Assembly (NCBI GenBank): GCA_903813345.2
Contig: CAIIXF020000001.1
Location: forward strand, 17,567,915 to 17,631,914
Origin: Owenia fusiformis
Lineage: Eukaryota > Annelida > Polychaeta > Sabellida > Oweniidae
DNA: 64,000 nucleotides
Direction of reading: 5' to 3'
Part shown: piece after piece, positions 14,449 to 53,796 of the stretch
How positions within the stretch are numbered: the first letter of the stretch is position 1
Layout of the letters: each line of letters starts with the position of its first letter
Made by a program: the position numbers and the translations under genes
Notes under the pieces: generated by a model
What the model was told of the DNA's origin: nothing
The model's database searches: none
Seen by the model: the letters and a program-made list of their open reading frames with translations, nothing else

Positions 14449-17400
14449 TTAAATAAAGTTGGCAGTGATAAGTATCAATGAAACTAGCAATGAGACTGAT
14501 GTAGATATTGAAGCTGCGCCATCTGTAGATTCTTGAGTAGTGTTTTCAGCACTACCACTTGCATGATCGTGATCATGATCGTGGTCGTGAGAATTTCCTT
14601 CGTGATGATCGTGAGAATGGCTGTCGCATGTCTTATGAAACCAAGTGTGGTGCAAGTGTTGCAAATGACCATTGTCCTTTAGGGATTGTATGGCTTCATT
14701 GAAATGTAACACGTGTCGAGAGTTTTTGGGAAAGGCAAGAGCATATCGTCCGAAATTTCCACCTGGGAACTCTATCTCTGTCAGATCGCAAGGTTCCTGA
14801 TGGGCGTAGTATTCAGCGGAAGGAGATTCTACAATAAATGCATAATTGCCTTGTCTGACTTTACGCAGACCGTCAGCAGTAGAACTGACGTAAGCATCAT
14901 CGGAATTCAAACGCATCCATCTGGCTGCTTCCTGCACAGTTCTATCATCACTCGATTCTATGTATTTGTCGACACTGCCACCTCGGATAGAACCGTACTT
15001 AATACCGTCTTCTGCTTGGTTGACGAGGTCTGCAAATGTCTTGATATCTATTTCACCGTTGGATGGTTTCTTTATGAGAATTGCAAGGCCGAATTCCATG
15101 AATGGATCAGAAAAAACAACAGCATTTCCACGCATTGGTGTTACTGTCAGATCTGCAATAGCGATATCAGCATCCTGAAACAATCACATTTAATTATATT
15201 TAGTTAGTAGATCACTGGTTTATTTTATCTAGCTAGCTTGTATTTGCCAATGCAACTATCGGCTGCCGGCTACCAGGTTAACCCACCATTAGCCGGCACC
15301 CGAAAGTTGCAATCGCGAATACAAGCCCCGGGATACTAGCTAAATAATCAAATCAAAATTGGTCGTGTTGAGCTTTCACTTCGGAACTTGCCGATATTCT
15401 TTAAAGGCCCACTTTGCGTATTTTCAATGTTTTTGGGCAAAATAAAGACTTACATTTGAATTTCATAGTATATCCAATGTATTGATAAGAACCTGATCTT
15501 TCATTTGACACCAACAGCAGCTCAAACAAACCACATCAAAGCTTACAATAAATTATCAAAATATATTTTCTATCTGTCAATATTTAGTTAGTAGATCACT
15601 GGTTTATTTTATCTAGTAAGCTTGTATTTGCGAATGCAACTATCGGCAGTCGGCTACCAGGTTAACCTACTATTAGCCGGCATCCGAAAGCTGCATTCGC
15701 GAATACAAAACCTGGGGATACTAGCAAAGTAATCAAATTAAAATTGGTCGTGTGGAGCTTTCACTTCGGAACTTGCCGATTGTCTTTAAAGGCCCACTTT
15801 GCGTATTTTCAATGTTTTTTGGCAAAATAAAGACTTACATTTGAATTTCATAGTATATCCAATGTATTGATAAGAACCTGATCTTTCATTTGACACCAAC
15901 AACAGCTCAAACGAACCACATCAAAGCTTACAATAAAAATTATCAAAATATATTTTCGATCTGTCAAGCTTTATGTATCAAGTTTTTATCAATGTCATTG
16001 AAAGATGGCGAAGTTTTTTGTTAACATGATTTTTATAGAAGTGTCGCCATCTTTTAAATCAACAGCAATATAAAACAAGCACTTTACTTAACATGTGCAT
16101 GCACTTCTAATGATGAAATTCTTTATGCTATGTGAGTTATTTTTTAGAAAATAAAACTCTGTGTCATATTTGAGCGAGTGTGTGTGTAAAATGTTTCAAG
16201 GGTTATTTTTTTCCTTTATTCTTCTAAATTAAGTATAGATGGCCTTTAAGTTAATAATATCACAAAACAAGAAGATGTCAGCCTCCTAATCTTTTATTAT
16301 TGTTATAAAGGTAAACTAAATATATTAAACAGCACAGACATCGTCAGGAATGTTCCTTTAACAAAAATGCCCATATTGTAGTCAAACAGACTGTCAAACG
16401 GGTGTTTAAATTCCGATGTGTGCTGCAAAATCTTATCTTTTTTTATGATCATAGAGCCTTACCTCATTGACGAGCTGCCCTATCAAACCATTCCAGCGGT
16501 CATTCTCTAGGTATCCATACTTGCCATCAGGAGACTCAGTGATGCTGTACCTAAATTCACCCATGACGTGTTGCAGCTCTTTGATTAAGTCAATGACGTA
16601 TCCGGACTCCTTATTAGACACAACTGAGTAAAAGGGTTGACTCTATAAAAAATTTAATATAAACTACATGTGTATCAATTCGATTTCAATATTTAAGGAT
16701 TTAAATGAAAAAGATACGAAATCACTAAAACAGCATATCTTCAGTGGAACTTGCAAGGGTAAAATTGGCAAAGCATCAATTTCAACATCAAGAATCAAGT
16801 TGTCACCTTGACAACCATTCAACGAATGACCTTGGGTGAGTTATTGGTTGTATAATACATTGCAAATTATATTAAATACTGTGTTCGGATTCGTGGCTAG
16901 AACTCTGGTTAAACTGCAGGTTAAACTGAGCCCAACAAGCCCTTGAAGTCTAACATGTAAGAAAAGAGGCTGAACAAGTGCATTGGGCTAAATACGGCAA
17001 ACATTTTAGAAGAAGAAGCTGAATTTCACTCAGAAACCTATAGAAATGTATCTATTATCATTTGAATCATGATAGTTTGAATTCAAATTAAATTGTTAAT
17101 CGAGGAGGAAACTGAATTCTTGAATCACACCTGCATGATTCACTCACATCTATTGTAGTTATCCTGAAGTTTTCATCCGAATGGTCGTGACCCTCGTGAC
17201 CTTCATCATGATCTCCGTGATCATGCGCATGATCGTGATCGCCATGGTCACCGTGGTCTTGGGCTGAAATGCACATATGACGCTTTAATGGAATATTATT
17301 TAACCAAAGTTCAATACTCAAATAATCTATTTCAGACATGATCAAAATAAAGTGAATTCAAAATCAAGGAAAAAGTAGACACAAATGTAATGCCCGAACA

Positions 17401-37089: not shown

Positions 37090-40000
37090 TCATTCTTTTA
37101 AAAGAGCAAACAAACATGAGCATAACACGATTAACAGTGAAATGTTTGGAAAAACTACATTTCCGGTTCCTGTAGGGTCAGTTGTTTCTGGTTCAGGGCT
37201 TTGAGTAGGTAGAGTGTATACGGGCAGATCTGTAGGACAAGCCTCGTCCCACTGAATGTCCATTCCCTCATTCTGTTTCTCAAGCCACGTTATCAGTGGC
37301 TGGAAATATTCGATTATAGCTCCAGCGTCCATTGTTGTGTTCCCAGTTACTTTCTCCATGGCAACTGCCCATGGCTTAGACGAGCCTAAACTCAACATAT
37401 CACTGAAACATGAAGAAATGATTTGAATTATAAATGCCAATCATACCAACATTCACAAATAGTCATATAAGTACTTTATGTGACAAGTTGGCCTCTGTAA
37501 CATCAACGATGGCATGGTTCTGTTTTAATCAGTTTGTTATAGTTTAACATCAAGTCTTCATGATGGAACAGTAACCCCATATTTTTCTCGTCAAATGTAG
37601 TCGTCGGGACAATGGACTTGATTCTTAAGTTTAATTACATTGTTAATTTCTGATTTTAATGAATATGTTCGAGAAATTAATTAACAAATATTTCTACTTA
37701 TATATTTCTGTTAGTATTGTTAGAAATAGTGAGTAACTTCTATATCTAGTACAAAAATATTAATAAACATCTAGGACTGTTTAAGGCCCATCATGTTGCA
37801 CTCTAAAAATAATATAAAACTCTGGAAATAATATAAGACAAAGGAAAGAATTCTAAAGACAATACACAGAATTTCTGCTAGTATAAGATTACACACAGCA
37901 CCAAAAGTTGACATGATGCAGGAAACCCAAAGGCATTTTGCTTGTAGACTAGTAACTGCAAGATAAGCAATTGCTTCTGGTGTAACCCCTAAATCAACAG
38001 TCGCATGTGCATTGTTAGCATCAGTGCATTCACATCCACATTGCAAACCATTTACATCCAGTTACATTACATTCAGTAAGAAAGGGGATACCAGACATGT
38101 GCCACTCATTAAACAAAATAATGGAAAGTACAACAAATATGACAACGCTGGCATACACAATCCTAATATACACGAAACATGCATGACATCAACGCACCCT
38201 AATTTTGCACCCGCTAGTTTAGATTTGTATATATCACACTTGTACAATGGACCCATATGGCCTGCATCCTTGCATAGAGCTTGGTGAAATTGAAACTGGA
38301 TAATAAAGCTTACAAAATACCTGGAATAAAAAGGAGTGAGAGAATAAGTGAGAAAGAAAGTAAGGTGAAGCAATAAATACTGAAATAGGCATGTTGTTGT
38401 TAGTATTTGTCGTGTCGACCAAGGACTTGATGGTAGGTATAGCATGTTCTCATATGGCTGATGATACAAATATGATTTGTGAAGATCCTAGGTTTTTCCA
38501 TTGAGGTATATTTGAGGTAGTTCCAAAACATGCAAGGACCTCTATGATAGAGTACCATGATACATGCTAGACATTCCAACATTCCTATTGTCGAAGGTAA
38601 GCAGTTTTTGATCTTGTGTTACTTTGGTTTGTTATCCATAGAAAGAAGAAAGGTATCCCAGACCATCCCTAACATCTGTGCAGCTAACAGACTAAGTAAG
38701 TACGGTCAACGAGAACGCTGAAAAGCAGGTTATACCGCAGCTTATTTAGCTAGATCGACTGATTTGTCAAGGATACAGTTGAATAGAAAACAAACTGCAA
38801 AAATCCAGTTATCACCGCCACTTGAGCCTACATGAGAAGGAGAATAGACTTCATTACATCATCTAAATTATTTTGTTAAAAGTGAAGACTTGGGACAGTA
38901 CAACATATATGTTGGAATCAGGTGCACCGTTTGGAAGATGGAAAGGCCAAAGCAAATGCTTGGAACAGGTTCCCAAGACTCTCTAATTGTCTTACCCCAG
39001 CTTAGTTCCGGCGTCATTTGAATTATAAATGTCACATTTGTAGAGTGGTCCAGTTTGATTGGCTGCCTCACATAAAGCTTGGTGGAATTGAAACTGGGTG
39101 ACTTCGCTTATAAAGTACCTAAGACAGCAGTGGTAAATTAATTATAAAATGCAAAATATAACTAAATGGCTGTTGGTCTATTGAGGAATCCGTGTCACCC
39201 GGGAGAAACTTCAGCCTTGGGATCAGCATTTATTAACCGCCGGGTAGGCAGGAACAGGAACACTGAAAGAAATTCAAGCAAAGCACACAATGCAGTATGT
39301 GCATATTCCCATTTCATATGTAATATTTACCTCAGCTTGTTGCCGGCCACGTGTGAATTATAAATGTCACATTTGTAGAGTGGTCCAGTTTGATTAGCTG
39401 CCTCACACAAAGCTTGGTGGAATTGGAACTGTATGACATAGCTTACAAAGTACCTAAGATAACGTGTTATTCATCAAATATGCGTCAGATACAATATTTC
39501 AACTAATTACTAAATTCTAGTTCTAACATAAAAAGTAAATCTATACATAATAAATACCATATATGATATGATATCACAACTTCGATCACAATTCAGGCCG
39601 ATGAAGTTAGATCTACTCATTAGCTTCTAGTTTTCATTTCAATTGTATGTCTCACCAGTCACCATACTTGATGCTCATGAATTAATATATAATCATTAGT
39701 GTCTAATGTTAACTTCAATTGTAGATTCACACATGACTTTGGCCTTATATGATGTGTATATATAGTTTGATCTACTAATTATTAGCTCCTACTTCAAGCT
39801 ACAGAAGCACAAGTTAATATAGAAAGAACATGGGTCAGCATCAAATGATGTATAATGATCCTGATTACATCCAAATCTACGAACATTATTATGATTTTTT
39901 TTCTCAGTTTATTTATTTCAATTTCCTTGATATTGATATACAAAAGTATGCCTTTGTTAACTTAATAACATTATCGGCATAGTAAATATTAAAAATATAA

Positions 40001-43000
40001 TACAGGAAATACAAAATACAAAAACCACGTAGTATGTTCAGTCTATATGTATGCTTGCTCCCCATCCCACCCATAAGGTTCCCAAAGGAATTTAGAATGT
40101 TTCACTGGCTCTTTAAAACTGTGATTGCTGTTGAGACATAGTGAGCCACGATTTCAATAATTTTGCTATTCATCACATCACTAAGGTTGGTATCCCCATA
40201 CAAAAGTGTATCTGATTTCTTAGAGATTGTTAAATTTCTGAAATCTGGCAGACATTCCAGTTCGTCGAGTCCTGCAAGAAGCAATTCCCTTTCATTTATG
40301 AGCAGTGGACATTTGATTAGAAAATGAGAAGTGGTTTGATGAGCTGCACCACATGGACATTTGGGATCATTAATTGTGGTAAAATTGTGGGCATGTAAAT
40401 GGCTATTAAGCAAGAGTCCAGCTCTAAGTCTGTTGAAAGTAATTTCAGTTTGTCTTGGCATAGTGTACTCCATTTTGGATGTGGGTAAGGATACATGGCT
40501 CCTTTGCTTCCTGACTGATCTTTTAAATCTTGAGATTGGCTGCCCAACTCGGATAGTTGGTGGAAGCCCATTCCAAGCTGAGATGGCACTAAAGATTGTA
40601 GATTTTTTGGTTGAGACACTAGTATGTAATGGAATCTGATAATCTGGCTGATCTCTCAGCCTTCTAGTGTGAACAATTTCATAAGTTCTCACCACATCAC
40701 AGATGAAGGGAGGTAAAGCATTAAAGCGTGCCTTAAAAATAAAATTTTTTAAGTGCTCATCTCTTCTCGATGCCAGCTTTTTCCAATTTAGAGAAGAAAG
40801 TACCTTATCAGTATTTGACCCATGAATAGCACCTGAAACTAGGCAGGCTGCTCTATAGTGCAGACTTTCGAGAGCTTGGAGCTTAAGAGCTGATGCTTTA
40901 TTGTAAATTATGTCACAGTAATCTAAGTGGGGTATGAAGTAAGCATTGTAAATTGTTTCAAGATGTTTGCTTGATAACTTTTTACTAAGAGCCTTCAATG
41001 GCCTCATTAAAATTGTCAATTTGTTAATCAGTTGGTCAATGTGGGCATTAAAGTTTAAGTGTTTATCTAACACTATTCCTAAGTGCTTATGGGTATCTGT
41101 CATTGGTATTTGCTAATTTCCTAAAGTTAATGATGGTTGAGCTGCTAATTGGGTTCTTTGGCCATAAAAGGTTAGATCAGCACTTTTTTGGGCTTTAAAT
41201 TGCATGCGCCAAGTGGTTGCCCATTGGTTAAGATTGTTCAGATCTTGTTGAAGGGGTTGATTTAAATTCAATAGCATGTCAGAGTTTCTGTCATAGGCAT
41301 CATAAAGTGACGTATCATCAGCAAAAAATAAAAGCTTTGGAGTTTAAGTTGTCAGGTAAATCGTTAATATATATTAAAAAAAGTAGGGGACCCAAAACAG
41401 AACCTTGGGGAACACCGGCATTTATAATGTATTGGGGTTTATTGGGATTATTGACCGGATTGTTGTTGTTACCAATTAATTCAGGATCAGAGGACCAATC
41501 GGAAAGGCAGTTATTAATACGCACTTTAACCCTTCTGTCTTTAAGATAGGAGGTCATTAATAGAATAATTTCATTGCTACATCCGTATGCTTTAAGTTTT
41601 TTTATTAAGAGTTTGTGGGGTACCAAATCAAATGCAGACGTCAGGTCTAAAAATATTGAACGGACATTTTTCTGTTGATCAACATTAGTTTGTATATCAT
41701 GAACAATGTTGATCAGTTGATTCACCGTATTGTGTTGTGGTAAAAAACCACTTTGAAATTTATACAAGAGATTATTATCCAGTAAATGAAGAAGGAGTCT
41801 GTTGTGGATTATTTTTTCTAATACTTTGGATAGTGAGCATAGTAATGTAACTGGTCTATATGATCATGTCTGATACTCATAAAGTTAAACTTAAAATCTT
41901 AATCATAATAGGTGTAACCTAGATGAATATGATCTACAGTGTATACAGAGAGTGCTATCCCTTTTTATAACATCACTAATTTTATCATAACTATCATAAC
42001 GGTTATTTGATTACCTGATGTAAGGCGTGTTTCCAGGTATATGGTATTTGGCACCTGGATCAAAATCGTCTTCTGTTCTTTGTACAGGTGGAGAAACTCC
42101 TTGGTACTTGCATCTAGAAAAGATGAACAAGTTGATCGTGTTTGAAAATACATCACATAGAACAGCCTTCATTCTCTTCGTAAATTATTACAGCAAGTTT
42201 AATGTATATTGTCATATTTTGATTTAAGTACCTTAGATCCCACCATTTTTTATTATAATCCTCGGGTGAAGTCTCTCCATTGAACACACTCCATCTCCAC
42301 TGGTCAATGAGGTATCCGAAAGGCAGGAATGCTATTTTCTTCAGAGCCTGGCTCAAAAGGAAGTTGATGTCACTTTCTAAATGGAAAAATAATTGTGTTG
42401 AATTTAATCAGCATTATGTATATTATACTGATTATGAATGTGCATGGTTATCCTTATGAATCTGAAAATACTCAGTGAACACATGGATTGTTAAAACATT
42501 TAATTATTTAGTTTGTGTTTTAGAGATCTTTGAATTGATTCAATAACATTTAATCGTTGTTGCGCTACTGTGCATACAGGTAAGTTTGATTCAAACGATG
42601 TTAAGTAAAGCATCGCCTTTTGGACCTTGTTGATTAATGTCGACAGTGCGTTTACCTTCGTCATCTACGACTTCCTCAAGAAGGCCAATTTCTTTCAGAT
42701 GTTTTGGGGTTGACACAGACAAAGACATGACATCCCCCACGGCCTCATGGAAACCTATAGAAAAGTTATGAACTATATTTGACTGTTTAAAATTACATAA
42801 TATCCTACTTCTTATGAATAATGGACGAGTAAGTAAATGTACTGGGTGATGTCACCCACAGTCTCGTGGAAACCCAAGCACAGAAAAGTTATGAAGTAAT
42901 TGACTGTTTAAAATTACATAACATTCTACTTTTAATGAGTGAGTAAAGTATATTATTAATCAAGATGAAGTTCAGTACTTAACTTCAAGTCTGAAGTAAT

Positions 43001-46000
43001 TGACTGTTTAAAATGACATAACATTCTACTTTTGATGAACGAGTTATAAGTATGAATAAGGATGGAGTTCAGTGCTTGAGTTCAATTGAAACAGACATTT
43101 AGTTGCATGTCATGTTATTTGATAATATAAAGATGTAGGTCATATCTGCTTGCAATTGTACACACGTTTATATAGGTCATATCTGAATTTATAGGTCAAA
43201 TCTAAATATATATATTATATCTCATTGTAGATCATATCTGAATGAACATCTCAACAGACATGATATAATTTCGGCCATTTTACCAGGATTTGCTCCTCTC
43301 CTAAAGACGACAGGTAGGTTTTTATACTGCAGGTAATATTGGATGTGGCCCATCTCGTGGTGTGTTGTAATAAGGTCAGACATGGTGATGTCTGTGCACT
43401 GTTTAATCCTGAAACACATAATATTCATTAACATGTGTATTATGACCTAGTACTTTCTTTAGTGAATCATAGTTTTGGATATTGGGGGTTGGTTTTTCTT
43501 ATTGATAGCTCTCTTCTATTATGTTTATGTTGTTTGGCATAATATTTGGTCTTTACTCTTTTTGCACCGTCCTGTGTTTGGACGATTGGTATTGTTGGCA
43601 TATCGTTTTAATTATCTATTTTAATATTCCAAAATAAGCATATCCAGTGAAATGTACAAAAACAAATACACAAACACAACAGTGGTTAAACAGAAACCTA
43701 CCCAAGAAATGAAAACATCAAAACAATATGTAATAAGACAACATCCAAATACTGAATGAGCAACCCTTTTCCAATTGAATCAATCTTCTAATCACTACCC
43801 CAAGCCCAGGCCGCGGAGTTCAGTTCCAATAGGTAAGACCAGTTACAGTTTAGCAATTCCGCTCCCCTGTCGGTGCCCGTCACATTCCTTGTCATATTCC
43901 AATACAAAGAAGCAGCGAGCAGAAAGAAACTTGTTTCAGTAATGCTTGGTCAATTTTGGGTCAAGGTTGATGGCAGAAGAAATTATCATATGCTTTGCTT
44001 AGCTCGGCTAGTTCAAAAGTTTAAGACCTATATCAAACAAATGCAGATGGTATATCTAATAGTAAATATTCTACTTCTATATTAGCTCTCACCTGAAATC
44101 TTTTTGGTTAAGGAAATCCCAAGCAGATGCGTGGCAGACGACATCTCGCCCATCATCAGGCTTTACTATCATGGAATGGTTCCAGAACTCCTCTGGCATT
44201 GGAATAAGGCCTAGTGACGTAAAAAACTCTTCCGATACTTCAAACATCTTCTGTGCTGTGTAATTCTGTAATAATACAATCACTTCAAGTTCACCGTTTC
44301 AATGGCTATAGTTATAAAGGAAAATGATTTGCTTGATCACTGAGGCAATCAAGTTATCAATTACAAGGGCGTCATTAGGACAACAGATTAAATGGGACAA
44401 ACGCAAATTGTCGGTAAAAGACTAATTAAAGGGACTCCATTTCCACAATTTAGTTTCTAGGAATGAATATATTTCTTCAAAAACGTTAGCGAAGCAGTTG
44501 CTTCACCAGCCTCATGCATGGCCTAATCTCACCTGCCTCATGCCTGGCCTCACCTGCCTCATGCGTGGCTATGTCCTTAATCATGTGATTTGTCATAGAA
44601 GCATGTATAAACATAGGATCGACCAACCTGTTCTTTCAAAGCCTCTGTAACATCAACACTTGGTTTATTCTTGAATGGCTGCAGCAAGTCTGAGTAGAGA
44701 TTTCCCCAACTCTGGGCCCACATGTTCCCTATAAGGGCATAACACTCTTGTTTTACAACTCAGTATAGATGATGATACAACTGAAGTCATGTATTGAAGT
44801 GAATCAGCCCTATTGTGGAAATACAATAACATACAATACAATATGTACAATACAATACAAGAGAGGAGTAGGACAAGGCTGCCCATTATCCTATTAGTTT
44901 TTCATCATTGGGGCAGAATTACCAAGCGCAGCGACTAGAAGAGACTGGTACCAAACTGAATGATCACCTGAAAACAGCAATAAGGACAGCACAATTTGCT
45001 TCTGACACTACACTACTGCTCCAAGATGAAACATCAATAGCCCCAGCAGTAAAACTACTCGAAATGTTCAGAGAAACAACTGGTATGTGCATTATCAAGG
45101 AGAAAACAGAGAAGGTAACAATTGGTAAAAACCCAAAATGAAGTACAAACCCTGTGCAAATTAAGAACTTGTTTGATTAGACAATTGGAAAACATAGGAA
45201 AAAAATAGAAGACATAGATTATCAAGAAGCTTTGGAAAACATCGAAGCCCAAATTAAAATTAAAGTGGAAGACAAGGAGTTAAAAAACAAATATAACTTA
45301 TCCTAACAAACACTCGTGGAGTTAAACCGTAACGAAATTATTCTGTGTATACCCTCATCAACCCGGGGTTATCATATAGACAAAAGCTGATTGAAAGGGG
45401 AAAACTTCACTTCAAAAAGTCACCCAGAGAACTATTGCCAAAGCTCAAGTAAAACACTGTCTTATAGTATCTAAAAAATCTAAAAATGCAACCAATAAAA
45501 GCACAAGATAGGTGGCTAAATATGAATGAAGATATAACTTCAGGGAATTGGATCAAATATACACCACTACTTAAGAATAGTAATGCGAAACTAAGCTTGT
45601 TCCTCGGGAGATGCACATATTTCCCTTTGGATAAACCCTGTATCCAAAACCTCCCAGTACATAACCCTTGTATATATCATGGCTTTTATTTAACTCACCT
45701 AAGAGATGAGCTGGGATTTGTCCAGTGGAAGGAAATTTATCTTCTCCATATTTATCAATGAGCTTCCTTTTTACATAGGCATGCAAATTCAGATAGAGCG
45801 GTTTGAGCTGTTCGTATAATTTTTGGCATTCTTCACGTAGATTGTCCATGTCATACCAAGAACGCCAATATTCGCCCGTATCGGCATATCCTATAAAAAC
45901 ACAGGGTACTCAGGAAGTAAAGTTAGGAATGGTTTTATTTACACTGAAATTGCTAAACAACCTATATTCCTCAAATCTAATACTCTTAATTTAGCTGTTG

Positions 46001-49000
46001 AAAATATTTGGTAGGTCTACCCCTTTTCATTGAATTTTTAAGGGACATATTATTCTATCTAATAACAAAGTCACTGTTCCACAACTAGTTACTTTGACGG
46101 AACGTCAATGTAACAAAATGGATGGATTTCCTCTTTAAGAGTTTTCTGATTTCTCGATTTAAACTTGCTTATAAGTCAAGCTGTAGATTACAATTTGGCA
46201 CAAAGCAAGAAAATATAGTCCAGTTTCAATAACTTTCTTCAATTTGGAATTTGTTTGTAAATGAAGTTGCAATTCATATATTTAGCCCCTCGCTTTTGTT
46301 ACATTGACGAAAGTCCGTTATATTACCAATATGTTACTTTGACGACTAACGCCAATGCAACAAAAGCGATGGTCTAAATGCATGAATTCTAGCTTTTTTA
46401 AAAGATCAAATTCCAAACCGAGGGCATTTCTAAAAGCTAGACTATATCGTCTAACTTTGTGCCAAATGATAATCCGCAACATTACTTATACGTAAGTTTA
46501 AATCGAGAAAACAAAAAACTCGTATCCAGGAAGTTCATCCATTTTGTTACATTGACGTTCCGTCAAAGTAACTAGTTGTGGAACAGTGATAGTTCAACGT
46601 ACCGTTGGCGCGTGCGGCCTCATTACTGATATTTACGAACTCCTTGTACAAATTGCGCATCTTTCTCCCGGACACATTTCTCCATCCAAACCACGCCCAC
46701 AATAGTTTATCATAGTCACGTGACTCTGCTAGTATCCTAGTTAGACCTAAAAAGGCACATGTGTTTGTATTTCCTAACATTTCTAAATGCTTTCATCTTA
46801 TTTATGAATATAAATTAAACTCTACTAATTTATTGTTAATATAAAAAAATGCAATAACGATACGGGGTTTTAGTTTAGTTTTACGATTATACTGTAACAG
46901 CGAAGTTTCAGGAACACCCACAAGGCTACAAGTAGTCATGCATTTAGCATATTAACGAAAATGATTGGTGCAAAGAAATGTGTCATTCTTTGATAATAAA
47001 AGCATGGCGGTTAGAGAGAAACAAAAGCAGAATAACGGCGACATTTTATTTCATTAAGGGTATGGACTACTCCCAACGCTCGTACCTGGATCAAGATTGT
47101 TGCACGTTGAATCATCATCACAAAGTTGTGCAGAGCTGTATAGACGTTCTAACTCAGATTCTATTACCTTTAACTAAACAGCAAAATGCAGGATATGAAA
47201 TACTGTAATATGCAAAACTGACATATCATGCAGGCTAAAGTGACTCTATGCGTAGGGGGTTTGTACCATTTTTAGTGTTAATGTCAATAGAAGCGAAGGC
47301 GAAGGTATTCATATCACGAGATTCATTCATTTTGGGTCTTTTTTGTCTATCGCATATGCCATCTATTCATTCAAAGTTACGAAAAAACACCTTCCTGAAA
47401 AGTGTGCACGGTCTGCTAACCTGAACTTCTGAACTTCTACTGCTATTTATCACGAAAGCTAATTTTTATTACTTCAACGAATAGCTGCACAAAAGGAGCT
47501 TTGTATAGTATTCAATAAGATTTTTGTTCTACGTTTCTTCTCAGTTAATACGCATAGTGCCTCTTTAAGATTCAAAACTAAATACATGCATGTATTGTTG
47601 GACATGTGATAATTAAGTGCTATATAAAGAAACTCTGAATCACGCCTAACCATCGCGTAAGCAGGCGTCACCGTACAGCGTCAAAAAATACCGTAGTACA
47701 GTTTTCTGTACGGTGACGAAAATTAACTGAGTTGAAGCAAAAACTTTAATGAGGGTTTTAAAAAGATTAATTAGATGAAAATAAATACGATTTCGGGTGT
47801 AATGAAAACAGCATTCTCTTAGGAATGGTTTTAACTTTCTAATTATGATAAAAGTTTTTCGAGCACTGCTCGGATTTTTTCTGACTGGATCGGCCCACAT
47901 AATCGACTCGAGAGAAAAAGGGTGTTTTTTCACTTTTCGTTTGGTTATTATTTTCCCTGTCGTCTGAGAGTATGGATTATTTTTATGAGAATATGTATTT
48001 GTTATCTACACATTTTTAGAACAGATGAATATTCGGCAAATAATCATTCAGTGTATTTATTTTAAAAAGATCAGAACTGTACGGTGACGCATCAGCTGAA
48101 CGGTGACGCTTCCTTAGATTTTAGGAAGTGCTCTAAGCTTACTGTTCGAACAAGAGGTAATGAAACGTCAGATCTACATGTACATTATCACTGGTTAGTA
48201 TCAAGCGAAGGTTACAGCCGTCACCTTCGCATTTAAGATGGCGGACAGGAAGTATTAATTTCGATATTTTTACTTTTCATGGAATTAACTATTTGAAAGT
48301 TGACGTAATGCTTTGGTATCATTTGAACTAAACCAGGCTTTTCTCATATGACTAACAAAGATAGCCTACACAGCCATCTTTACCCCATGCAAGATATTGC
48401 ATCTTTCATCCTAAAAAGTCACACGTGCAAGATGAGATTTACTTGTGACATCCCTTGTTTTAAAATACAATAACATAGCAACAAGAGAGTTTTTGGTTTC
48501 ATGATCTTTACCGTATCATACATTTCCAGTAACCTTCCATTAAGCTGTGGAAGATATCGTTGAACTGTAGCGCCCATGCACTATATATGAACAAATGATC
48601 ATACTCCGGAGTTTCCATTTCATACAATCTTAGTCTCATTTAGTTCATCATAGCATAGCGTCACCGTACAGCTGGTGCGTCACCGTACAAATTTGATCTT
48701 TTTTAAATATACATAATGAATGGTTGTTTGCTGAATCTTCGCCCGTTCTAAAATGTGTAAGTAACAAATACATATTCTCATAAAAATAATCCATACTCTC
48801 AGACGGTAGGGAAAATAATAACCAAACAAAATGTGAAAAAACAACCTTTTTTCACTCTGGTCGATTATGTGGGCCGATTCACTCAGAAAAAATCCGAACA
48901 GTGCTCGTAAAACGTTTATCATAATCAGAAAACTGTACTCCGCTATTTTTTGACGCTGTACGGTGACGCCTGCTTACGCGATGGTAAGGCGTGTGAATCC

Positions 49001-52000
49001 CATATTGTCTTTGAGATGTCCATCCACATTGATTACTTAAAAAATTCACATCTTAAATTTAACAAAGCTAGTGTGAAATTGTAAGTTTCTGGCAAAGATA
49101 GTTTAGAATTAGCGACAATGCAGGTGGACTGCCTTTGCTTATACGAGTCATATCACCAAACATAATTAGAAAAGGCCAAGATTAAAACTATAATAGGATA
49201 CTTGTATTTTATTCAAAGTGTGGATTATGCGCTCATATTTTTGAGCTGAGTTTACTCATCCACTATCAATACACATAAAACTATTTTTCAAATCAAAAAC
49301 ACTTGTTACATTTTCACTTACTACTTACATGCAAAGACTTTAGTTTAAATAAAAACAGTTGTTGTACCAGAATGAAGTGCTGTGAAGTTTGGAGGTTTTT
49401 AACCTATTCATTGTAAAACCATTACTACCAAGTAGTAAATCCCCGGAGTAAATCTAATATCTGTGACAAAACAAAATCCTTATCCTCGTTCCGTTATTGT
49501 GATTTAGTCTATTCAATCGCTATCAGCGTGGCCTTATGATTAAACTGGAACGTGAATTTTTAACATGGATGCAACAAAAATCTTATGATTTTGTGTCTCG
49601 TTGTAAAGTAATTTACCGCATAAGGCATACTTCTAAAATGCAAAACCTCCATTCTTACGCACTCCATCTTGTTACAGAATTGTAGTCGAGAGCAAAAAGG
49701 GTCACATATCAACAACATTATAGTTAGAAGTGCATTTCCTTAAACATTGAAGGCAGTATCAGATCAGTATAGGGATGAAAAATTGCAAGCAAGAATGTTG
49801 AAATTCTCTCAAATAATATAAATGGTAACCGTTAGAGAAAAATAATACATTATTGTAAAAACTTTAGTTTTACTGAAATGAAATATGCACTTTGGGGATT
49901 TTTAGAAAATAAACATGACAAGGAATGATATGAGCCAAACACATTTTAAAATTGAAATAAATTGTCGCTTGATCTGATTCACCCTTTAATTGTACCAGAT
50001 ATGCAATACTAATTACTACAATTTAAAAAACACAGCATAACAAGGTTGTGTTAGTTGATAAACAATTAATAGGAAGCTTTTGCATAACGGAACGTGTAGC
50101 CTTAGTCACACCGAACATCTACCTGGTTCCAAGTGAAGGCACTCATCTGGGGTACGGCAAAGCGCTGCCGTTGCATAAATTTTCCTCATGTTCGCACCCA
50201 GCTGGTTTATCTTTAAGGAATGGAGAAATTGTTTGTTAGCAAATTGATTCTAGAAAGCTTATCTGAAACAAATATGTTTGACGTATATGAGTGTGAGTGT
50301 AAGCCTCTAGTTTTATTGTATTTTATTGCGATATGATATGCAAGTCATGTCAAGCCCAAGTCAAGTAGGATGTCAAAATGAAGACGGCGTGGTACAGGGG
50401 GCTAATAAAAGAGTAAGTGTAGATTGTATAATTGCTTACAAACTTCTCAAAAGGTCGATGGTTTTATCTTCGTGTAGATGATGCATATTATTAGAAGAAG
50501 GGGTAGGAGGTATAAAATGTTGGAAGTAGTATTTCAAGAAACATGCCAGAGTTTCCCTTGTAATCCTCCATTTTATGAAAATATATCTGAGCAAATGAAG
50601 ACATTTTTAGGACTAAGTTTCCATCCCTTCTACTCTCTTTAAATCTAATCTTATGAAGTGGTTGTCATCTCACAAATATTCTTACATATTTACATAGGCT
50701 TAGGTTTACACGATCACTAGAATTAAAGCGTTTGTGATTTGAATATCTAAGTATAACATAACTATATCGAATGACACTTATAAATAATTGAAGAGACGCG
50801 AGGCTAAATATACAGCGACATACCACTCATCAAATTAATGTTGTTTTTTGTTGAATATTTGTTTAGAATTAGAATGGTACATAAAATGCAAGTACTTCTT
50901 GAATAAACATACAAAATTCATTTATCAACGCGAATCAATGCTACTGTCATTTACAATTCACTAGTGGATAACAAGAGTTATCTAAAGACTTGCGCGTGTA
51001 CACCCCCTACACCCAGTTCTACATCCCAGTAAAGGAAGGTCACCTTTTATGTTTGGCGATTTTAACAAAATATTTTATCATCAATCTCCAGTCTATATTG
51101 TAATTGGGGAGCAAAATAAGATTCTCACTTGTATCTAATGAGAAGCGTATGGATGGGGTTGGGGTGTTAAATTCAGGAGCACGATGTTTAAAGTGTCCGT
51201 TTACCCTAGAAACGAATTTGCATTGGATCTAAAACAGCCCTTATGTGTTTTTTATTCTATTTGAAAATTTTAAATCTTACGTGAAACAATTTAAGGCAAC
51301 AGATAATGACAACTTTTATTGATTACTTATTTTGGGTTTCGTTATTTGATCTAAAGATTTCTGAATGTCGGAATGTCTAGTGATGTATGTCTGTTGAAAG
51401 AAGATGCACCAAAATAGTACTTATGTTTGCTAAACTATAGATCATATGACCCACCTACCCGTTTCTGTTTACGTTTATCTGTCAATGCGGCTGTGCCTAT
51501 ATCTACCAGTTTCTTAAATATTCGCTTCAGTGTAGAATTTTGGAAATTTTTCCAGTCGAAAGATGATGACCGTCTAAAATTCCCTAAATTAAAAGCTGAT
51601 CTGGATAAGATGGCTTCTTGCTGAGAAAACAATAAGAAAAGGCAATTAGTAACTCATTTTATATATTGTATCAGTGTAGTATTTAGACACTGCAGGGTTC
51701 TGTTTCGAGTTCACCATCTCTTCATGTGGAATTTGTGATTCCTTCAGCAGAGTTCAGTAGTTCGCGTTTCAAAATACAAGTATCTCAAGGCAGCGCCCTA
51801 CGACGAGAAAAATGATTAGTTAGTGGTAATGGTGTGTCAAATCTGGATCAGTTACTCACCTTTGTCAACCTGTCTTCGGGCAGAGAGGCCGATCCTATGT
51901 CAGAGGCCTTTTTGAAAATTCTCTTCAGAGTTTCATTTTGAAATGCAGTCCAGTTGAACCTCGATGCATTTGCAGCTACCTCCTTTTCAAATGCTGCCTC

Positions 52001-53796
52001 CACCAGTTTAGCTTCTACCTGTTCGATTTTACATAAAATACAATTCATGAAATACATTGTTATGAGTTGTTATGAGGAAGCAAGTTGAGTATGGAGAGGG
52101 CCATGGGGCAGCAAATACCATACCAAACACCAAGGGTATTCTAGGACTGTTGCACAGTCAGCAATATCTATCTCCTATATACCTTTAATTTGTTAGACAC
52201 ATTTTCACGATTAGTTTCGGTTACAGATGTCCACAAAGCACAAAATCGTAATAAAAGGTTAAACTATACTTCAAGTGACTTGAATATTGTAGAAAACAGT
52301 TAATATAAAGTTTGCATTCTTCAACCCAATTCGCTGTGCTTAGCAACATCTCGTGAAATCTCGCATTTGCTGTCAAGTAATTGACAAAATGAAGTAATCC
52401 ATTACTGTTGCAAATTCACGAACGACTCAGAAAATAACGTATAATCAGATGTCACGTTTTGATCGTATGGAGAACTAAAGAACTTATCAAAATTGGTTGG
52501 TAGACTTTCGTCTAGAAACAACATTACCAAAAAAGGTTGATCTGATATGAATACAACCTACCACTCTACACTAAACCTTTGCAAAGAAAAGACCTGCCGA
52601 AATTAAAACTCGTTATTTCTAAATGAGTTATCTGTTCAAATAGAAAAGTTAATGGAGTTATGTCGGCACAGAACGCACAGAACGCCAGTGCGTTAACTAT
52701 TGTTAAGAATTCAAATAAATAATTTCTCAAAAAATTTGTTTTCTTATGGCAACATACAATTATGTGTGAGGTCAATTCCAATAAATCGAAAAAAGATTAT
52801 GTGGCTACTAGGTCTATACTTTGAACATATAATAGTTTCTATTTAGATGCATTCATAATCTACGGGTGGTTTTCAATTCACTTACTGGTGCCAACTTTAT
52901 GACGAGTACTTAGTTCCTATTACTGTTATGTTATGATAACTACACATTGCTAAGATGCTATGGATGCCAGTTGGTTTATGTTGAAGGTGATTAATATGTG
53001 TTAGGCTGTCAACACCATGCCACCAGGCTCCGTTTTGAAAGCAATGCTGTCTTAGTATGTATATATAACACAAACACTACACAAGAAATGTACACAATTT
53101 TTTTTTATTATTTCAAGTCCAACAGATGATGAAAGTTCAAATAAAAAAATCTCATGTTGTTTCTCAGGTCTCGATAGTGTGGTGACCATGTCCATAGAAG
53201 ATCTGTAACACAAATGAATGATTTAACTTCAAACAAGATATTGGTTGTTGGAATTACATCTTCAATTTTGTTATTTTCATAGCATTCCCCTCAGAGCAGT
53301 TAGTGTGGGAATATAAAGATCTGACATCAAGACATTTTGCGCACAACACAAAGAAATGCTTCGATTGGATAGCGAGGATAGTGGACATATCAAAATTGTA
53401 TCTGTGCATTAAGCTGTAGAGGTGTATTTGTTTTTCTAAGTTTCCGGTATTATTTATTTGACCATCTCATCAATGAGGACAATTCCTAGAGGACCATATG
53501 TAGATTGACAATTACTAGGCCCCCATATAGCTATGGAGTCTGCTAATAATTTATAGGGTAACCCCACCATGGTCACTGCAGAGCATGCAGAAGCGATTAC
53601 TTACCGACAGTTGTGAGTTATGATCCGTTAGGTTTGTGTTGTAATTCCAAGACGCCTGAATCGATTTAAAATAGACTTCCTGAGACTCATCATTCACTCT
53701 ATTCACGAAAGCCCATGCTTCATTTTCATCAGTTATTAACTGACAATCTGTGCTTGCAAAAGCGACAACAACCATCAGCAACCCTATGGAAGACAT
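37090..53796 (-). CDS. ACE: Angiotensin-converting-enzyme-like peptidyl-dipeptidase (M2 family), complete, with tandem alternative exons
   Basis: Zinc ectopeptidase that releases C-terminal dipeptides. Exons in coding order: 53605-53796, 51860-52018 (or 51459-51620), 47086-47173, 46603-46746, 45699-45890, 44628-44728, 44093-44265, 43284-43408, 42656-42754, 42232-42376, 42015-42113, one of 39331-39453, 38996-39118 or 38198-38320, and 37090-37402. All phases agree. With one version of each alternative the protein is 650 aa, a single-domain ACE. It has a signal peptide (residues 1 to about 18), HEMGH at 367-371 with catalytic Glu368, third zinc ligand Glu395 in HEAVGD, and Lys495, His497, Tyr504 and Arg506 matching testis-ACE Lys511, His513, Tyr520 and Arg522. 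The last about 20 residues are hydrophobic with only KE after them, so a GPI or tail anchor is likely. Introns carry LINE fragments, a foldback element and a MITE. Confidence 0.95.
38198..38320 (-). CDS. ACE alternative exon 12, version C (distal)
   Basis: 123 nt in phase 2/2, encoding 40 whole residues beginning [16 protein letters not shown] and including [12 protein letters not shown]. It supplies the equivalent of testis-ACE Tyr523 and the Cys538-Cys550 pair, and has Phe at the position of Phe527. It is the version closest to the vertebrate sequence. Its donor is GTGCGT, weaker than those of the other two versions. About 29 of 40 residues match version A. Confidence 0.9.
38996..39118 (-). 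CDS. ACE alternative exon 12, version B (middle)
   Basis: 123 nt, same phase and length as its neighbours, beginning [16 protein letters not shown] and including [13 protein letters not shown]. Acceptor TCTTAG and donor GTAAGA are both good. The residue at the Phe527 position is Glu. About 34 of 40 residues match version A, so A and B arose from the more recent duplication. Confidence 0.9.
39331..39453 (-). CDS. ACE alternative exon 12, version A (proximal)
   Basis: 123 nt in phase 2/2, beginning [16 protein letters not shown] and including [13 protein letters not shown]. Acceptor ATCTTAG and donor GTAAAT are acceptable. The residue at the Phe527 position is Tyr. It is the first version after the constitutive exon ending in TPYIR at 42015, which lies 2.5 kb away across a LINE insertion. 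Confidence 0.9.
39900..41868 (-). mobile_element. 5'-truncated non-LTR retrotransposon (LINE) in an ACE intron
   Basis: Starts abruptly inside the reverse transcriptase at [17 protein letters not shown] (41868 inward) and continues with [29 protein letters not shown] and [12 protein letters not shown], then a long C-terminal region ending at the stop at 40102, with a Cys/His cluster ([10 protein letters not shown]). The 3' tail runs to about 39900. Jockey/CR1-like by its motifs. The exact 3' end and target duplication were not found. Orientation is the same as the host gene. Confidence 0.85.
40102..41868 (-). pseudogene. LINE reverse transcriptase, truncated and frameshifted
   Basis: Two breaks are visible. 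A frameshift in the T-run just before the FADD catalytic motif (about 41320) separates the finger/palm part (to 41868) from the thumb part. An in-frame stop lies at about 41113 between LTLG and QIPMTD. From 41103 to 40102 the frame is intact for 333 codons. The N-terminal endonuclease is absent by truncation. Confidence 0.85.
44846..45260 (+). pseudogene. Decayed LINE reverse-transcriptase fragment
   Basis: On the plus strand the frames read [16 protein letters not shown], then [16 protein letters not shown] and [13 protein letters not shown], matching the RxGVRQGCPLSP and (Y/F)ADDTTL regions of non-LTR reverse transcriptases. The catalytic motif is ASDT instead of ADDT, and there are stops and gaps. 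It is antisense within the ACE intron between exons at 44628 and 45699. Diverged coding-like sequence may continue to about 45570. Confidence 0.7.
46072..46589. mobile_element. MITE with CACTGTTCCACA ends, copy 2
   Basis: Near-perfect inverted arms of about 60 bases (CACTGTTCCACAACTAGTTA and complement), extending with lower similarity across almost the whole 518 bp. Same terminal sequence as the element at 24915-25420. Its right end lies 13-14 bases from the splice donor of the ACE exon at 46603-46746. Confidence 0.85.
47641..48993. mobile_element. Long foldback element with repeated CGTCACCGTACAG
   Basis: Left end CGCCTAACCATCGCGTAAGC and right end are inverted, followed by CGTCACCGTACAG. 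Most of the outer 350-450 bases on each side are inverted to each other (47641-48115 versus 48655-48993). CGTCACCGTACA or its complement occurs about eight times, near the ends and at inner arm borders. No open frame resembling a transposase was seen. It lies in ACE intron 2, between exon 2' and exon 3. Confidence 0.8.
51459..51620 (-). CDS. ACE alternative/duplicate exon 2'
   Basis: 162 nt in phase 0/0 with acceptor TTCTCAG and donor GTAGGT. Encodes 54 residues including [19 protein letters not shown] and [15 protein letters not shown], clearly homologous to the exon at 51860-52018 (about half the residues identical, best in the second half). It lies directly downstream of that exon. The first half and the basic end diverge from the family, so it is either an alternative exon or a copy starting to decay. 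Confidence 0.75.
51860..52018 (-). CDS. ACE exon 2 (canonical copy)
   Basis: 159 nt in phase 0/0 with acceptor GAACAG and donor GTGAGT. Encodes [33 protein letters not shown] and [14 protein letters not shown], the expected N-terminal lid helices of an ACE domain. It joins cleanly to the signal-peptide exon (DHNSQLS) and to the exon starting [12 protein letters not shown] at 47173. Confidence 0.92.

What the first reader, a model, noticed from the sequence alone, without database searches (positions are those of the whole stretch)
38198..39453. Triplicated ACE exon that swaps a residue of the substrate pocket
Three tandem 123-nt exons share phase 2/2 and all encode the segment starting at testis-ACE Tyr523 and containing the Cys538-Cys550 disulfide. 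They differ sharply at the position of Phe527, which lines the S2' pocket: Tyr (A), Glu (B) and Phe (C). Mutually exclusive splicing would give three enzymes from one gene with different dipeptide preference. A Glu there would be a drastic change.
Basis: partly seen in the sequence, partly recalled or inferred. Interest (0 to 1): 0.88.

Follow-up and report, generated by a model that had tools for sequence, protein, structure and literature searches.

The report
ACE gene with swappable pocket exons
In an unnamed animal, one gene for a blood-pressure-type peptide-cutting enzyme carries two or three interchangeable copies of three of its exons, and two of those sets change a residue in the pocket that chooses which peptides are cut, so splicing could make up to twelve differently tuned enzymes.

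Summary
Three 123-nt exons (39331-39453, 38996-39118, 38198-38320, minus strand) share phase, GT-AG sites and the Cys538-Cys550 pair. They encode Tyr, Glu and Phe at the tACE Phe527 position, a published S2' pocket residue. All show coding constraint. Exon 2 has two copies (about 50% identical). Exon 3 has two 88-nt copies that swap Glu for Asp at tACE position 162, a published selectivity residue. A paralogue has a tandem exon 6 that swaps Val for Lys at position 282 (S2'), with only 39 nt between copies. All 12 single-choice combinations are open, full-length proteins. Skipping or double use of exon 3 breaks the frame. Residue 527 varies naturally (F, Y, H, E or T in this genome; R, T or Q in the bacterial relatives found), so Glu is unusual but not absurd. 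Mutually exclusive use is the best explanation but is not shown: no RNA data, no related animal genome, and for exon 12 no frame, distance or RNA-pairing barrier was found. A new variant of a known kind, and clearly testable.

The parts
53605..53796 (-). exon 1: start codon, signal-peptide-like start, first part of the M2 domain
   Evidence: start codon and signal peptide judged by eye
51860..52018 (-). exon 2 copy D1 (159 nt, phase 0/0)
   Evidence: profile E 1.2e-17
51459..51620 (-). exon 2 copy D2 (162 nt, phase 0/0), about 50% identical to D1 in protein
   Evidence: profile E 2.3e-17
50123..50210 (-). exon 3 copy a (88 nt), Glu at tACE position 162
   Evidence: profile E 2.5e-6
47086..47173 (-). 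exon 3 copy b (88 nt), Asp at tACE position 162; both Cys kept
   Evidence: profile E 4.6e-5
46603..46746 (-). exon 4
45699..45890 (-). exon 5
44628..44728 (-). exon 6 (single copy here; Gln281, Ser282); duplicated in paralogue G2
44093..44265 (-). exon 7
43284..43408 (-). exon 8 with the zinc motif HEMGH
42656..42754 (-). exon 9 with Glu411
42232..42376 (-). exon 10 (Lys453, Phe457)
42015..42113 (-). exon 11 (Lys511, His513, Tyr520; Arg522 codon split at its donor)
39331..39453 (-). exon 12 copy A, Tyr at 527
38996..39118 (-). exon 12 copy B, Glu at 527
38198..38320 (-). exon 12 copy C, Phe at 527 (as in human ACE)
37090..37402 (-). exon 13: end of the M2 domain, stem and hydrophobic C-terminal tail (membrane or GPI anchoring, by eye), stop

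Best explanation
This is a complete single-domain ACE (peptidase family M2) gene in which exons 2, 3 and 12 have been tandemly duplicated and are spliced alternatively, one copy of each per mRNA, giving up to 2 x 2 x 3 = 12 enzymes from one gene with one catalytic core. Exon 12 resets the S2' pocket at residue 527 (Tyr, Glu or Phe). Exon 3 resets position 162 (Glu or Asp; subsite S1' by recall). Exon 2 changes an N-terminal segment and its glycosylation sequons. Shown: the copies, open frames, splice sites, phase match, coding constraint and intact catalytic residues. Inferred: that each copy is expressed, that choice is exclusive, and that specificity changes. Predicted effect: Phe gives ordinary hydrophobic P2' binding. 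Tyr narrows the pocket and adds a hydroxyl. Glu sits in a pocket whose residue 453 is Lys (Asp in human cACE), so it should either pair with Lys453 and shrink the pocket or favour P2' Arg/Lys.
For: Three exon-12 copies with equal length, phase and splice sites. Profiles built without window sequences find all seven copies of exons 2, 3 and 12. All 12 single-choice combinations give one open protein of 650-651 aa. H383, E384, H387, E411, K511, H513, Y520, R522, Y523 and Cys538/550 are present in the 3 of 12 that I aligned, which between them contain every copy. The exon-B assembly scores 912 bits against Pfam Peptidase_M2. Fewer amino-acid changes and no stops compared with random placement of changes: A-C, B-C, D1-D2 and G2 6a-6b 0 of 5000, A-B p 0.003, exon 3a-3b p 0.004. 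Skipping or double use of exon 3 shifts the frame; of exons 2 and 12 it deletes or repeats 41 or more residues of the fold. Paralogue G2 repeats the design at exon 6, with a 39-nt gap; in the list of 49 intervals of the four genes the next is 110 nt, apart from one zero where G1 has no intron. Published roles: 527, 162, 282.
Against: No transcript evidence and no relative's genome. Double inclusion of exon 12 or exon 2 keeps the frame. The A-B and B-C introns (212 and 675 nt) are of ordinary size. None of ten intron pairs around exon 12 beats shuffles clearly (best z -1.6). The acceptor of D1 is weak (2nd percentile of 44 reference acceptors) and those of A, B, D2, 3a, 3b lie at the 14th-34th. 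Exon 3 copies share only 7 of 29 residues, and their p value reflects mainly the absence of stops (22 amino-acid changes against a mean of 25.7), so that set is the least secure. C groups with the two intron-poor genes rather than with A and B in the exon-12 trees (82% in the nucleotide tree, low in the protein tree). The match of duplicated exons with pocket residues is post hoc: chance about 0.04, or 0.01 if 527 must differ in all three.
Confidence: 0.72

Rival explanations
1. One copy of each set is the working exon (for exon 12 most likely C, with the human-like Phe and the best acceptor); the others are minor, noisy or decaying duplicates.
For: The C acceptor scores above all 44 reference acceptors while A and B are at the 32nd percentile. 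The C5 paralogues G1-G3 have a single exon 12 each.
Against: A and B are open, have both splice sites, keep Tyr523, both Cys and the QFQFH core, and show fewer amino-acid changes than random placement gives. No copy of exons 2, 3 or 12 has a stop, frame shift or lost splice site.
Confidence: 0.17
2. Two or three copies are included together, giving an enlarged, probably inactive protein.
For: 123 nt is a multiple of three; A+B, B+C, A+C and A+B+C all stay open, as does D1+D2.
Against: It would repeat 41 or 82 residues that hold the Tyr523 segment and a disulphide; for exon 3 double inclusion shifts the frame.
Confidence: 0.05
3. The exons are alternative, but the changes tune stability, glycosylation or partner binding rather than substrate choice (overlaps with the best explanation, which it only trims).
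For: Of 13 variable exon-12 positions, 12 are not named pocket residues, and three of the four three-way positions (556, 557, 560) lie elsewhere; A and B have a glycosylation sequon that C lacks, and D1 carries two more than D2.
Against: 527, 162 and 282 are published selectivity or pocket residues and all three change.
Confidence: 0.25

Closest known systems
ACE / peptidase family M2 (human cACE and nACE, Drosophila AnCE, Anopheles AnoACE2)
   Same: Full domain, zinc motif, carboxylate-binding and chloride-site residues; single domain with a C-terminal hydrophobic tail.
   Different: The ACE diversity described in the passages read comes from gene or domain duplication and from alternative promoters or first exons (PMC1325048, 12 of 19 places shown); here coding exons inside the catalytic domain are duplicated in tandem.
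coq-2 of helminths, whose alternative exons switch the substrate of a polyprenyltransferase (PMC7434440; abstract and outline read; keywords also list annelid and mollusc)
   Same: Alternative exons of an enzyme that change substrate choice.
   Different: coq-2 has experimental support in that abstract; here three sets in one gene and no RNA evidence.
NALCN channel alternative selectivity-filter exons (PMC3557258, abstract and outline read)
   Same: Alternative exons that swap residues of a selectivity-determining site, including E against K (that these exons are tandem duplicates is recalled).
   Different: An ion channel, not a protease.
ACSL6 fatty-acid gate-domain switch (PMC1543647, title and start of abstract in a search listing only)
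   Same: Isoforms of one enzyme that differ in a substrate-gate segment.
   Different: Different enzyme family; details not read.

Membership tests
M2 peptidase (ACE) | HEXXH zinc motif plus downstream Glu411 | tested here: met
M2 peptidase (ACE) | C-terminal carboxylate site Gln281, Lys511, Tyr520 and His353, His513, Tyr523 | tested here: met
   on 3 of 12 assembled isoforms
M2 peptidase (ACE) | chloride-site residues Arg186, Tyr224, Trp485, Arg489, Arg522 (list recalled) | tested here: met
   all identical to tACE
M2 peptidase (ACE) | dipeptidyl carboxypeptidase activity | not testable with these tools
   needs expressed protein
mutually exclusive tandem exons | adjacent homologous exons of equal phase with valid splice sites | tested here: met
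   exons 2, 3 and 12 of the window gene and exon 6 of G2
mutually exclusive tandem exons | copies under coding constraint | tested here: met
   weakest for A-B (p 0.003) and exon 3 (p 0.004, mainly absence of stops)
mutually exclusive tandem exons | exactly one copy per mRNA | not testable with these tools
   no RNA data
mutually exclusive tandem exons | a barrier to double inclusion: frame shift | tested here: inconclusive
   present for exon 3 and, by its 101-nt length, for G2 exon 6; absent for exons 2 and 12
mutually exclusive tandem exons | a barrier to double inclusion: intron too short | tested here: inconclusive
   G2 exon 6: 39 nt; window exon 12: 212 and 675 nt; exon 2: 239 nt
mutually exclusive tandem exons | a barrier to double inclusion: competing RNA pairing | tested here: inconclusive
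   no signal for exon 12; not tried for exons 2 and 3; no relatives for covariation

The most novel reading that the evidence does not exclude
A combinatorial protease gene: splicing at three exon sets chooses position 162 and residue 527 independently, giving up to 12 ACE enzymes with programmed P1'/P2' preference. Glu527 works with the gene's own Lys453 as an electrostatic switch that lets the Glu isoform take peptides ending in Arg or Lys, or closes the pocket. A paralogue reached the same end by another exon (Val/Lys282).
Probability: 0.35. Interest if true: 0.87.

Novelty: new variant of a known kind. Interest (0 to 1): 0.74.

Why it matters
If true, one peptidase gene tunes which peptides it trims by splicing. 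Nature would have run a controlled mutagenesis of residues that structural papers on ACE use to explain inhibitor and peptide selectivity: 162, 282 and 527. That makes S2' rules directly testable with natural variants on one scaffold, and it is a case of exon duplication and gene duplication diversifying the same pocket. Four searches of a 5.39-million-paper library listed no report of mutually exclusive exons in an ACE gene; they showed 7 of 10, 15 of 94, 12 of 88 and 12 of 20 papers, so this is not proof of absence.

Tried and rejected
RNA pairing between the introns around exon 12: ten intron pairs against 30 shuffles each, best z -1.6; no support. Frame or distance as the exclusion device for exon 12: rejected. 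Assembly duplication: rejected, because copies differ by 13-34%, introns hardly align, and two whole-genome searches with exon-12 proteins list 8 places each, the three here and five in paralogues. Gene conversion between A and B: the middle 78 nt have 3 differences and the 42 end nt 12 (p 0.002 by base, 0.013 by codon); suggestive, but selection could do the same, so left open. Exon-12 trees: A and B group together (82% protein, 90% nucleotide) but C groups with the two intron-poor genes (82% in the nucleotide tree), so whether all three copies arose inside this gene is unresolved. YN00 failed for most pairs and NG86 dS is saturated for most, so constraint rests on the random-placement test. 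Site percentiles are rough: several paralogue donors were set off by a few bases and one reference acceptor (G1 exon 9) is not a real one, so I lean only on acceptors and on the large gap in intron sizes.

Full report
What was checked. The finding's three exons are exactly where stated: A 39331-39453, B 38996-39118, C 38198-38320, minus strand, each 123 nt, AG and GT flanked, phase 2/2. The upstream donor follows 42015 and the last exon starts at 37402. Numbering on a human tACE chain (HEMGH = 383-387) puts Tyr523 at the start of each exon, Cys538 and Cys550 inside, and Tyr, Glu, Phe at 527. The Arg522 codon (a chloride-site residue, recalled) is split across the junction, and all three copies complete it as Arg.

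The whole gene. I built the gene from 53796 to 37090: 13 exon positions, 17 exon copies. Every internal boundary is AG and GT. All 12 single-choice assemblies are open to one stop (650-651 aa without the stop). On the 3 of 12 that I aligned, which between them contain every copy, all catalytic, carboxylate-binding and chloride-site residues examined are present. The exon-B assembly matches Pfam Peptidase_M2 over positions 2-576 of 581 at 912 bits.

More duplicated exons. Exon-wise tblastn of 16 exon queries over the gene and its paralogues showed that exon 2 and exon 3 are also doubled: D1 52018-51860 and D2 51620-51459 (about 50% identical protein), and 3a 50210-50123 and 3b 47173-47086 (both 88 nt, 7 of 29 residues identical, both Cys kept). 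Profiles made from tACE and paralogues only, with no window sequence, find both exon 2 copies (E 1.2e-17, 2.3e-17), both exon 3 copies (2.5e-6, 4.6e-5) and all three exon 12 copies (7.3e-26 to 4.2e-24); the best other place in the window has E 0.17. Exon 3 swaps Glu for Asp at tACE position 162. In human ACE the same pair separates the domains: cACE Glu162 makes an electrostatic contact with an inhibitor lysine that the shorter nACE Asp140 cannot (PMC9796954, passages read).

Paralogues. PF01401 in the same genome hits this gene, a three-gene cluster on C5 (G1, G2, G3), a gene on C1 at 39.66 Mb, and two genes with no or few introns on C5 and C7. G1-G3 share the exon plan, except that G1 lacks the intron between exons 8 and 9. 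They have one exon 12 each, with His, Tyr and His at 527; the intron-poor genes have His and Phe, and the divergent C1 gene Thr. G2 has its own tandem pair, of exon 6: C5:16783114-16783016 and 16782974-16782876 (whole codons). They differ at 5 of 33 residues, one being the neighbour of Gln281: Val against Lys at tACE 282. Position 282 is a listed S2' subsite residue (Gln266 AnCE, Thr282 cACE, Ser260 nACE; PMC12025037 Table 3, passage read). The two copies are separated by 39 nt; in the list of 49 intervals for the four genes the next shortest is 110 nt, apart from the one zero where G1 has no intron (paralogue values good to about 3 nt). Their dN is 0.10 against dS 1.27.

Constraint. Placing the observed base changes at random in the first copy gives more amino-acid changes, and often stops: A-C 11 against a mean of 23.8, B-C 13 against 24.1, A-B 6 against 10.4 (p 0.003), D1-D2 24 against 37.3, 3a-3b 22 against 25.7 (p 0.004, mainly because 86% of random placements bring a stop), G2 6a-6b 5 against 13.1; the others 0 of 5000 (p counts placements with as few changes and no stop). 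A-B: dN 0.083, dS 0.404. A-B differences are uneven: 3 in the middle 78 nt, 12 in the 42 end nt, and flanking introns align only for about 35 nt. In exon-12 trees A and B pair (82% protein, 90% nucleotide), but C falls with the two intron-poor genes (82% in the nucleotide tree), so the origin of C relative to A and B is open.

What residue 527 does. In human ACE the P2' group of enalaprilat lies in a pocket formed by Tyr523, His383, Phe457 and Phe527 (PMC12820606, passages). In mosquito AnoACE2 the residue is Tyr, and this is given as the apparent cause of a shifted fosinoprilat (PMC9796954). In AnCE a P2' Arg touches Phe511 (the counterpart of 527 by the same offset as Tyr507 and Tyr523) and bridges to Asp437, the counterpart of Asp453 (PMC12025037). 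In the window gene position 453 is Lys, so Glu527 would face a positive pocket wall: a salt bridge, or a site for basic P2' residues. This is inference. Across relatives the catalytic residues stay fixed while 527 moves: of 11 bacterial loci found with two short peptide patterns, 10 reach the position and carry Arg (2), Thr (4) or Gln (4), all 10 keeping Lys511, His513, Tyr520 and Tyr523; the eleventh is cut off. None has Glu or Phe. So Glu is unique to exon B in this sample, but polar and charged residues occur.

How it would work. The productive reading is one copy of each set per mRNA. For exon 3, and for G2 exon 6 by its 101-nt length, double use shifts the frame; for G2 the 39-nt gap should also prevent splicing the copies together (the spacing rule is general knowledge, not tested here). 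For exons 2 and 12 neither applies and no RNA pairing was found around exon 12, so a regulated choice must be assumed. C has the strongest acceptor, A and B middling ones, as for a default exon with regulated alternatives.

Limits. No RNA evidence, no related animal genome, no structure run. The coincidence of duplicated exons with pocket residues has a chance of about 0.04 (0.01 requiring three-way difference at 527) and was noticed after the fact. Most variable positions in the exons are not pocket residues. Two of three exon sets in the window gene touch a named selectivity residue; for exon 2 I found none named in the passages read.

Literature. Searches listed no paper describing mutually exclusive exons in an ACE gene (7 of 10, 15 of 94, 12 of 88 and 12 of 20 papers shown). 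In the passages shown, the Anopheles ACE family paper reports alternative first exons only, and the words 'splic' and 'mutually exclusive' do not occur in it (PMC1325048); the word 'exon' does not occur in the oyster ACE paper (PMC3235092). Precedents for the principle: coq-2 (PMC7434440, abstract and outline) and NALCN (PMC3557258, abstract and outline).

Noticed in passing
window 39900-41863 (limits by eye), minus strand: A LINE-like retrotransposon remnant lies in the 2,561-nt intron before exon 12A and fills most of it; of two frames scanned, one matches Pfam RVT_1 at E 3.8e-25 and one matches nothing.
   Followed up: partly
L004:1061-3337 (C5:1.387 Mb): An intronless ACE-like gene with HEMGQ instead of HEMGH, so one zinc ligand is lost: a likely pseudo-enzyme, still open over 758 aa.
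   Followed up: partly
L002:876-1116 (C5:16782876-16783116): Tandem exon 6 pair in paralogue G2 with only 39 nt between the copies and Val or Lys at tACE position 282.
   Followed up: yes
window 39331-39453 and 38996-39118; 51860-52018: A and B carry an Asn-Gln-Thr glycosylation sequon that C lacks; D1 carries two sequons more than D2.
   Followed up: no
window 39587-39723: A diverged 61-nt direct repeat (72%) in the intron just before exon 12A.
   Followed up: no
window 14452-15183, minus strand: A 244-aa open frame with matches to ligand-binding families of glutamate-receptor type (PF00497, PF10613).
   Followed up: no
L003 (C1:39655501-39665500): A divergent ACE-like gene with Thr at 527, His at 282 and Arg at 453, so yet another pocket.
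   Followed up: no
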